The notes below the pieces were generated by a model that was not told the DNA's origin, ran no database searches, and was given only the letters and a program-made list of their open reading frames with translations. Positions 5,147 to 62,398 of a DNA stretch of 64,000 nt are shown piece by piece. The DNA comes from Knoellia flava TL1 (GTDB lineage: Bacteria > Actinomycetota > Actinomycetes > Actinomycetales > Dermatophilaceae). The position numbers were made by a program, and so were the translations under genes. Each line of letters begins with the position of its first letter. The stretch's first letter is position 1. The DNA is taken from the NCBI RefSeq assembly GCF_000768675.1, contig NZ_AVPI01000010.1, positions 1-64,000 on the forward strand. The letters run 5' to 3'.

Positions 5147-5169
5147 GCGGAGGTGTCGGTCACGGCAAC

Positions 5170-5175
5170 TACGCT
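5170..5175 (+). promoter_or_regulatory. -10 element TACGCT, probably leaderless
   Basis: TACGCT ends six bases before the ATG at 5182; no ribosome binding site is present. Leaderless geometry. Confidence 0.55.
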
Positions 5176-5181
5176 TGCAGG

Positions 5182-5958
5182 ATGACCGAGGACGCGACGA
5201 CCGCACGCCGCACCGGCGTCTCGACCTCGCCACGGACCGCCGCCATGTGGGCCGCCGTCGACGGGGTCGTGCGCGAGCGGAGCGCCGAGCTCGGCCGCCC
5301 GCTGCGGGTCGTCGACCTCGGGGGCGGCACCGGCGGCCTCGCGGTCCCGCTCGCCGTCGCCGGCCACGACGTCACCGTCGTCGACCCCAGTCCCGACGCC
5401 CTCGCCTCGCTGCGGCGCCGGGCCGCCGAGGCCCAGGCGTCCTCGCGGGTCAGCGCCGTCCAGGGTGACGCCGAGACCCTCGAGTCGCTCGTCGGACGCG
5501 ACCGTCCCGACCTCGTCCTCTGCCACGCCACGCTCGAGTACGTCGACGACCCGGGGGCGACCCTCCGCCTCGTCGCGGCGGTGCTCGCGCCCGGCGGCAT
5601 CCTCAGCCTCGTCGTGCCGCAGCGCTCCGCCGCCGTCCTCGCCCGCGCCATCGCCGGCCAGTTCGCGCAGGCCCGCGCCGCCCTCGACCGCCCCGACGGG
5701 CGATGGGGCGACGCCGACCCGGTGCCGCGGCGCTTCGACCGCAGCACCGTCCTCGACCTTCTCGAGACCGCCGGCCTCACGCCGACGGTGGCACACGGCA
5801 TACGGATCTTCAGCGACCTCGTGCCGTCCGCGCTCGTCGACTCCGACGCCGACCGCGCGGCGCTGCTCGACCTCGAGCGGGCCGTCGTGGCGCACCCCGA
5901 GTTCGCCGTCCTGGCCGACCTCGGCACCTCCCTGCACGTCATCGCCGCGCGCACCTGA
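5182..5958 (+). CDS. Class I SAM-dependent methyltransferase
   Basis: 258-residue Rossmann methyltransferase. Motif I is VDLGGGTGGLA (about residues 43-53), an acidic residue ends strand 2 (TVVDPSP), and HATLEYVDDP marks motif IV. The layout resembles CmoM/SmtA-type tRNA or small-molecule methyltransferases, but nothing seen fixes the substrate. A leaderless-type -10 sits six bases upstream. The stop is seven bases before dinB, so the two genes probably form an operon. Confidence 0.8.
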   Translation: MTEDATTARRTGVSTSPRTAAMWAAVDGVVRERSAELGRPLRVVDLGGGTGGLAVPLAVAGHDVTVVDPSPDALASLRRRAAEAQASSRVSAVQGDAETLESLVGRDRPDLVLCHATLEYVDDPGATLRLVAAVLAPGGILSLVVPQRSAAVLARAIAGQFAQARAALDRPDGRWGDADPVPRRFDRSTVLDLLETAGLTPTVAHGIRIFSDLVPSALVDSDADRAALLDLERAVVAHPEFAVLADLGTSLHVIAART

Positions 5959-61856: not shown

Positions 61857-61874
61857 ATGCTGATCGAAAGCATA
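61857..61874 (-). promoter_or_regulatory. nirA -10 with overlapping inverted repeat
   Basis: On the minus strand TATGCT (61874-61869) is a candidate -10, about 40 bases before the nirA ATG. ATGCT-N7-AGCAT (61857-61873) overlaps it and could be a repressor site. Confidence 0.45.
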
Positions 61875-61953
61875 AGAGCGAGTTATGGCACCCGGAGAGG
61901 GTGGTCCACGATGTGGCCGCGCCGAGACAGGTCCTCGACACCTTTCACCGGGG

Positions 61954-61974
61954 TATCATCGAACACATGTTCGA
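61954..61974 (+). promoter_or_regulatory. Perfect SOS (LexA) box over the start codon, with leaderless -10
   Basis: TCGAACACATGTTCGA (61959-61974) matches the actinobacterial LexA consensus TCGAAC-N4-GTTCGA in all 12 conserved positions. The ATG of the following gene lies inside it. TATCAT (61954-61959) overlaps its first base and ends seven bases before the ATG, fitting a leaderless promoter that LexA would block directly. Confidence 0.85.
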
Positions 61975-62398
61975 CCCCTCGACGCCGCCTCCACTGCGGC
62001 GCTCGGCGAGCCCGGGTGCACCCGGGGGGTCGCGCCGGCCGGGGCCGCCGGGCTGGCCCGACCGCGTCCCGCCGCCCGAGGCGCCGGGCTGGCAGGTGCC
62101 GGCCGTCGGCTGGCTGCTCGACCACTGCCCGTCGGACTACCGCATGTATGCCGTGTGGCGCCGTCACCCGGTCGCCCTCGCCTGGGTGACCACGCACCAC
62201 CTGGACGCCCAGCTGGGAGCGATGCGGACGGCATACAGGGGGCTTCGGGTCGACCTCGCCGACCACGTCGAGCCCGAGGGGATCGCGGCCTCGCTGGCGG
62301 CGCTCGAGGCCGAGGGTGCCCGGCTCGTCGCGGCCCGCCGGGCGGCCGGTCTGCTCCTCGAGGCCATGCAGGGGCACACGTTCGTGCCGCGCCTCTGA
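61967..62398 (+). CDS. SOS-regulated hypothetical protein
   Basis: 143 residues. A Pro/Gly/Arg-rich disordered N-terminus (residues 5-45), then a helical domain: WLLDHCPSDYRMYAVWRRHPVALAWV, and an amphipathic C-terminal part ending EAMQGHTFVPRL. No catalytic motif, signal or membrane helix. The start is the ATG inside the SOS box; a longer frame upstream would cross the promoter. Divergent from nirA. I do not recognise the family. SOS control suggests a role in DNA damage response, cell-division delay or mutagenesis. Confidence 0.8.
   Translation: MFDPSTPPPLRRSASPGAPGGSRRPGPPGWPDRVPPPEAPGWQVPAVGWLLDHCPSDYRMYAVWRRHPVALAWVTTHHLDAQLGAMRTAYRGLRVDLADHVEPEGIAASLAALEAEGARLVAARRAAGLLLEAMQGHTFVPRL

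What the first reader, a model, noticed from the sequence alone, without database searches (positions are those of the whole stretch)
61954..62398. Perfect LexA box on the start codon of an uncharacterised gene
TCGAAC-N4-GTTCGA is intact and contains the ATG, and a TATCAT -10 overlaps it, so LexA would sit on both promoter and translation start. The product (143 residues, Pro/Arg-rich head and helical tail) has no recognised family. It would join the SOS regulon with dnaE2-type mutasome genes and might be a division inhibitor, a mutagenesis accessory or a nucleoid factor. It is next to sulfur genes, not repair genes, so annotation would miss it.
Basis: partly seen in the sequence, partly recalled or inferred. 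Interest (0 to 1): 0.76.

Follow-up and report, generated by a model that had tools for sequence, protein, structure and literature searches.

The report
Conserved DNA-damage gene with LexA start-site switch
A small bacterial protein of unknown function is very probably switched on by DNA damage: the SOS repressor's binding site is fused to its start codon, and many relatives keep the same gene under either that switch or an entirely different damage switch.

Summary
TCGAACACATGTTCGA lies at 61959-61974, overlaps a TATCAT -10 (61954-61959) and contains the ATG (61967) of a 143-aa ORF. The genome (a Knoellia relative) has 7 perfect boxes against 0 for the reversed pattern; boxes with 0-1 mismatch also precede lexA, recA, a DUF6504/SAV_6107/dnaE2-type cluster, a 2OG oxygenase and DUF222/HNH genes. 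In 65 of these 70 the -10 shares its last T with the box; in 56 an in-frame ATG/GTG lies inside it, so the mRNA is probably leaderless. Of 132 orthologues, 26 others carry a PafBC-type (RecA-independent damage) promoter close to the start; 47 have neither. Two unrelated damage regulators on one gene is strong, though indirect, evidence for a damage-response role. The product is a soluble, mostly helical protein without a detectable relative of known function, ending in a conserved FVPRL tail. Its role is unknown; I favour a docking protein over an enzyme or membrane division inhibitor. Damage induction is not shown.

The parts
61954..61959 (+). -10 hexamer TATCAT; its last T is the first base of the LexA box
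   Evidence: TANNNT at this place in 65 of 70 LexA-box orthologues
61959..61974 (+). perfect LexA (SOS) box TCGAAC-ACAT-GTTCGA
   Evidence: kept in orthologues
61967..61969 (+). ATG start codon inside the box (its G opens the right half-site), 7 nt after the -10: predicted transcription start = start codon (leaderless; inferred)
61967..62398 (+). ORF with the box at its start, 143 aa, orphan family
61967..62041 (+). variable Pro/Arg-rich head (residues 1-25), mostly disordered in the model
62042..62368 (+). conserved core (residues 26-134): PPGWPxxVPPP..GW motif and helices 43-53, 56-59, 62-66, 68-96, 103-134
62381..62395 (+). conserved C-terminal tail FVPRL
   Evidence: tail of this type in 108 of 132 orthologues

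Best explanation
This is very probably a DNA-damage gene under direct LexA repression. One 21-bp cassette (TANNAT/CGAAC-NN-RTG-TTCGA) serves as -10 element, LexA operator, transcription start and start codon of a probably leaderless mRNA. LexA bound there would cover the -10 and +1 and block open-complex formation; RecA-driven LexA cleavage would free it. In sister lineages a -10 and a leaderless start are kept but the LexA box is absent and a PafBC element (TGTCRG, 10 nt upstream of the -10) stands instead, so damage-induced timing would be kept while the regulator is exchanged. Shown here: the sequences, their conservation and their near mutual exclusion. Inferred: LexA and PafBC binding, induction, leaderless transcription. 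The product is inferred to be a soluble non-enzymatic helical protein that docks on a partner through its core and its conserved FVPRL tail (this last step is a guess, about 0.35).
For: Perfect box in place; 7 perfect boxes vs 0 control in the genome. Boxes with 0-1 mismatch before lexA (two), recA, DUF6504/SAV_6107/dnaE2-type genes and a 2OG oxygenase, and at DUF222/HNH genes of the same genome. Orthologues: LexA box with at most 1 mismatch in 59 of 132 upstream windows (17 genera); the surrounding 483 kb hold 1 such box, i.e. about 0.07 expected (my arithmetic); 11 of 23 further order-level loci have it. Of these 70, 65 share the -10 overlap and 56 have the in-frame start inside the box. PafBC motif TGTCRG-N10-NANNNT on the sense strand in 27 of 132 (26 of them near the start, 18 genera), on the antisense strand in 1 of 132, about 0.8 expected; it co-occurs with a good LexA box only once, and there it is remote. 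24 of the 27 end 6-7 nt before the first in-frame start codon. Motif as given in a passage of PMC8151990, first base of the -10 relaxed by me. On the tree the LexA label needs 9 changes, at least 4 forced by starred branches; LexA and PafBC rows alone need 6 changes. The strict PafBC motif is enriched in this genome: 35 sites vs 2 for the reversed pattern, one of them before recA.
Against: No expression or binding data. 47 of 132 orthologues have neither motif by my criteria; 19 of them group together on the tree (SH-aLRT 87), mostly with a similar -10 by eye but no regulator site. Of the 47, 10 have a 2-mismatch LexA match (7 of them genus g298; one, L196, is remote), one has a TGTCAC variant, L176 has only 69 bp upstream and L219 reads N there. 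9 of 9 distant homologues of large-genome actinomycetes have no box. In most of the other order-level families looked at neither motif was found. Counts of genomes are not independent. The tree is a quick one on 121 columns with 48 of 126 inner branches open. The protein role is unsupported by any homologue.
Confidence: 0.85

Rival explanations
1. The box really serves the divergent sulfite/nitrite reductase gene, and the small ORF only lies beside it.
For: The reductase starts at 61873 on the other strand and the box lies 86 bp upstream of it; LexA boxes are palindromic.
Against: The box keeps its place at the -10 and start of this gene family in genera where no reductase was seen nearby, for example beside dxs; the reductase has a palindrome of its own at its called start.
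Confidence: 0.04
2. The match is only coding constraint: MFD/MFE at the N terminus writes the right half-site.
For: In 56 of 70 the right half-site codes the first residues.
Against: The left half-site and -10 precede the start codon; in 14 of 70 no in-frame start codon lies in the box and the box is still there, e.g. L142, L134, L140; orthologues without the box start with other residues.
Confidence: 0.02
3. The product is an SOS cell-division inhibitor.
For: Small SOS-controlled orphan genes often are (recalled: SulA, YneA, DivS, SidA).
Against: No membrane segment (largest 19-residue hydropathy 1.13), unlike the YneA/DivS/SidA types (recalled); no Pfam or NCBIfam match.
Confidence: 0.12
4. 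The product is a nucleic-acid or nucleoid-binding factor.
For: Whole-protein pI 9.2 with a Pro/Arg-rich head; invariant or near-invariant arginines R59, R87, R94, R119, R125.
Against: The basic head is missing in many orthologues; core pI 6.6; no DNA-binding fold found.
Confidence: 0.15

Closest known systems
LexA/SOS regulon of actinobacteria (e.g. Streptomyces venezuelae, PMC9380542)
   Same: Same 16-bp operator (tCGAAC-N4-GNNCGa in a passage of that paper); this genome has boxes at recA, lexA and a dnaE2-type cluster.
   Different: The gene family does not appear in the passages I saw of that paper (not searched for by name, as it has none); here the operator is fused with -10 and start codon of a probably leaderless mRNA, unlike recA, lexA, the dnaE2-type cluster and the oxygenase gene of this genome.
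PafBC regulon (RecA-independent DNA-damage response; PMC8151990, PMC11804915, passages)
   Same: 26 of 132 orthologues carry the PafBC promoter motif near the start.
   Different: The window's own gene has no PafBC motif; it has the LexA box instead.
SAV_6107-like HEPN proteins of the dnaE2-type SOS cluster (PF18726)
   Same: Small actinobacterial protein in a cluster behind a perfect LexA box of the same genome.
   Different: No profile similarity (hhalign probability 0.9%).
SOS division inhibitors (SulA, YneA, DivS, SidA; recalled)
   Same: Small and SOS-controlled.
   Different: No membrane segment, no family match.

Membership tests
LexA (SOS) regulon | actinobacterial LexA operator at the promoter | tested here: met
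   exact box overlapping -10 and start
LexA (SOS) regulon | operator kept in orthologues | tested here: met
   9 of 9 in the genus (8 perfect, 1 with one mismatch), 59 of 132, 11 of 23 more; absent in the others
LexA (SOS) regulon | host has lexA and recA with like boxes | tested here: met
LexA (SOS) regulon | LexA binds and damage induces the gene | not testable with these tools
   needs bench work
PafBC regulon | TGTCRG-N10-TANNNT promoter | tested here: not met
   absent from the window gene; present (relaxed -10) near the start in 26 of 132 orthologues
SAV_6107-like HEPN | profile match to PF18726 | tested here: not met
YneA/DivS/SidA-type division inhibitors | single membrane-spanning segment (recalled) | tested here: not met
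   largest 19-residue hydropathy 1.13
SulA | SulA family match | tested here: not met
   no Pfam or NCBIfam match up to E = 1

The most novel reading that the evidence does not exclude
An undescribed actinobacterial damage-response protein whose gene keeps a -10 and leaderless start while its control is swapped repeatedly between a LexA repressor site at +1 and a PafBC activator site at -26, with intermediates that carry traces of both (L175, L109); the protein is then an effector that selection insists must be damage-induced, by whichever regulator is at hand.
Probability: 0.6. Interest if true: 0.75.

Novelty: new variant of a known kind. Interest (0 to 1): 0.62.

Why it matters
It adds a widespread orphan family (125 of 149 genomes of the taxonomic family, own genome included) to the probable DNA-damage response and makes its function testable. 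It also gives a natural series in which one gene has passed between the two damage regulators of actinobacteria, which would let one ask how such a swap happens without loss of damage control. The fused operator/leaderless start is a compact repression design.

Tried and rejected
First pass left minus-strand loci unturned and wrongly showed no box in several loci; corrected. Box as operator of the reductase, and box as coding constraint: rejected (see rivals). Relation to SAV_6107 HEPN: none. PDB sequence search: best hit a SAM-domain protein at E 0.01, the other 13 at 0.6 or worse, not taken as homology. Foldseek: no hit at E <= 0.001 in PDB or BFVD. PHROGs, Pfam, PADLOC over 24 members: only stray single-member hits. 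Phages: no match; plasmids: 4 records with partial matches. The phylum search (14 of 396) scored only 11 candidates per genome, so it is a lower bound. Literature: no paper on this family was seen in searches; the family has no name to search for and the library holds open-licence PMC papers only, so this is weak. In the radiation-resistant Knoellia paper PMC11433714 the words LexA, SOS, transcriptom- and hypothetical do not occur (passages only).

Rows dropped: of 125 matching family genomes (own genome included), G508 (E 2e-4) was left out; second matches in G009 and G504 (L220, fetched) were not counted. Of 58 matching genomes, 30 got loci; 7 of these repeat genomes already counted, 23 are new; L257 has no upstream DNA and counts as a miss; the matching genomes without a locus were not examined unless already.

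Full report
What is there. The window reads ggTATCATcgaacacATGttcgac at 61952-61975. The 16-bp palindrome TCGAACACATGTTCGA (61959-61974) is exact, shares one base with the TATCAT hexamer and contains the ATG of a 143-residue ORF. By chance the window should hold several 2-mismatch look-alikes, and does; the exact form is rare: 7 places in the 3.56-Mb genome, none for the reversed pattern, and 26 against 8 with up to one mismatch. The nearest named relatives are mostly Knoellia strains, with one record called Janibacter sp. HTCC2649.

The LexA system of this genome. lexA is present. Boxes with 0-1 mismatch lie before lexA (two), before recA, before a cluster coding DUF6504, a SAV_6107-like HEPN protein and a PHP-domain protein like the start of DnaE2 (by eye), before a 2OG-Fe(II) oxygenase (AlkB-like by eye) and at three DUF222/HNH-type genes (families). 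So the motif marks expected SOS targets, and this ORF is among the 7 perfect ones. Two of the 7 (L005, L007) lie at contig ends and were not assigned; most of the 19 one-mismatch sites were not examined, and given the control (8) many will be chance.

Conservation of the box. The protein is found in 34 of 58 close relatives, 125 of 149 genomes of the taxonomic family, 58 of 198 of the order and 14 of 396 of the phylum at low sensitivity, the window's own genome counted each time. In the genus, 8 of 9 genomes have a perfect box and 1 has one mismatch, all at the start codon. Over 132 orthologues (49 genera; 124 of the 125 family matches plus 8 order-level ones), 59 have a box with at most one mismatch, against 1 in 483 kb of surrounding DNA. 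Of 23 further order-level loci, 11 have it, among them 9 of 10 in one other family, f15, and 2 in family f8. Over these 155, 70 have the box.

Architecture. In 65 of the 70 the -10 TANNNT ends on the first base of the box, and in 56 of 70 an ATG or GTG in frame with the ORF lies at box positions 9-11. The gap of 7 nt from the -10 to the start codon implies that the mRNA begins at the start codon; this is inference. The boxes at recA, lexA, the dnaE2-type cluster and the oxygenase gene of this genome are not built this way; two DUF222 boxes (L001, L003) do hold a GTG that is in frame by my count, without the shared TANNNT.

A second damage regulator. Many orthologues without the LexA box have TGTCRG-N10-NANNNT just upstream of the start. 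This is the PafBC promoter motif as given in a passage of PMC8151990 (TGTCGG or TGTCAG, 10 N, TA, 3 N, T), with the first base of the -10 relaxed by me. It occurs on the sense strand in 27 of 132 windows (26 near the start, in 18 genera) and on the antisense strand in 1, with about 0.8 expected from the surroundings. In 24 of the 27 the motif ends 6-7 nt before the first in-frame start codon, so this class too looks leaderless. Only one genome has both a good LexA box and a PafBC match, and there the latter is remote (L211). One promoter, L175, has the PafBC element and a 2-mismatch box on one shared -10; L109 has a TGTCGG one base off spacing plus a 1-mismatch box (by eye). On a quick protein tree the LexA label needs 9 changes, at least 4 of them forced by starred branches, and LexA and PafBC rows alone need 6. 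The strict PafBC motif is enriched in this genome as well (35 against 2 reversed), with one copy before recA.

Against. 47 of 132 have neither motif; 10 of these have a 2-mismatch LexA match (7 in genus g298), and two cannot be judged (L176 short, L219 N). A group of 19 genomes (SH-aLRT 87) has mostly a similar -10 by eye and no regulator site. Outside f1, f15 and f8, only one order-level locus (L147, PafBC) showed a motif. Nine of nine distant homologues in large-genome actinomycetes (probably Streptomyces, my inference) lack a box.

Context. dxs (1-deoxyxylulose-5-phosphate synthase, one fragment checked) lies within the fetched stretch in 32 of 48 genera, and is the next called ORF downstream in 28 of its 34 occurrences; aconitase (one fragment checked) lies nearby in 20 genera. 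The sulfite reductase stands beside the gene in 5 genera, this one included. So neighbours do not explain the gene; its promoter does.

The protein. 24 diverse members share PGWP-x2-V, W49-LLD, P55, R59, H78, R94, E116, R119; over 132 members L50, D52, P55, R59, L71, R94, E116 are invariant. The model (pLDDT 80, pTM 0.71, 10 sequences) has a disordered head, short helices and a long helical hairpin 68-96/103-134. The tail FVPRL or a near form is kept in 108 of 132 though its end is disordered in the model, which suggests a docking peptide; genera g20, g289 and g298 differ there. No relative by Pfam, NCBIfam, PHROGs, PADLOC, PDB sequence or fold at useful significance. No membrane segment; pI 9.2, core 6.6. 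I recognise no catalytic set among the conserved residues.

Verdict. The SOS assignment is supported by independent tests; the second regulator makes a damage role very likely; the biochemical function stays open, and my preferred reading (a soluble docking protein) is a guess from anatomy.

Papers: PMC9380542 outline and passages; PMC8151990, PMC6789036, PMC11804915, PMC11433714 passages; all others only as search listings. The names SulA, YneA, DivS, SidA and their traits are recalled.

Noticed in passing
window 5154-5184: Exact PafBC motif TGTCGG-N10-TACGCT (5154-5175) ending 6 nt before the ATG (5182) of a methyltransferase gene followed by a dinB-type (IMS family) polymerase gene: a second probable leaderless damage operon in the same window.
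   Followed up: partly
window 61871-61887: Palindrome CATAAGAGCGAGTTATG overlapping the called start of the sulfite/nitrite reductase gene; only 2 exact sites of this form in the genome (control 0), and by eye present in relatives with the same neighbour: candidate operator of a sulfur regulator.
   Followed up: partly
window 61904-61916: GTCCACGATGTGG, a near-palindrome by eye kept in several Knoellia relatives between the two divergent genes; unassigned.
   Followed up: no
L001, L003, L004 (match at 1501-1516 in each): At least three of the seven perfect LexA boxes of the genome stand at DUF222/HNH-type genes.
   Followed up: partly
L175 upstream of the orthologue: Promoter with a PafBC element and a 2-mismatch LexA box on one shared -10 and start codon, a possible regulator-swap intermediate.
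   Followed up: partly
L057 2210-2314: recA of this genome has both a 1-mismatch LexA box (2210) and a PafBC motif (2293) upstream.
   Followed up: no
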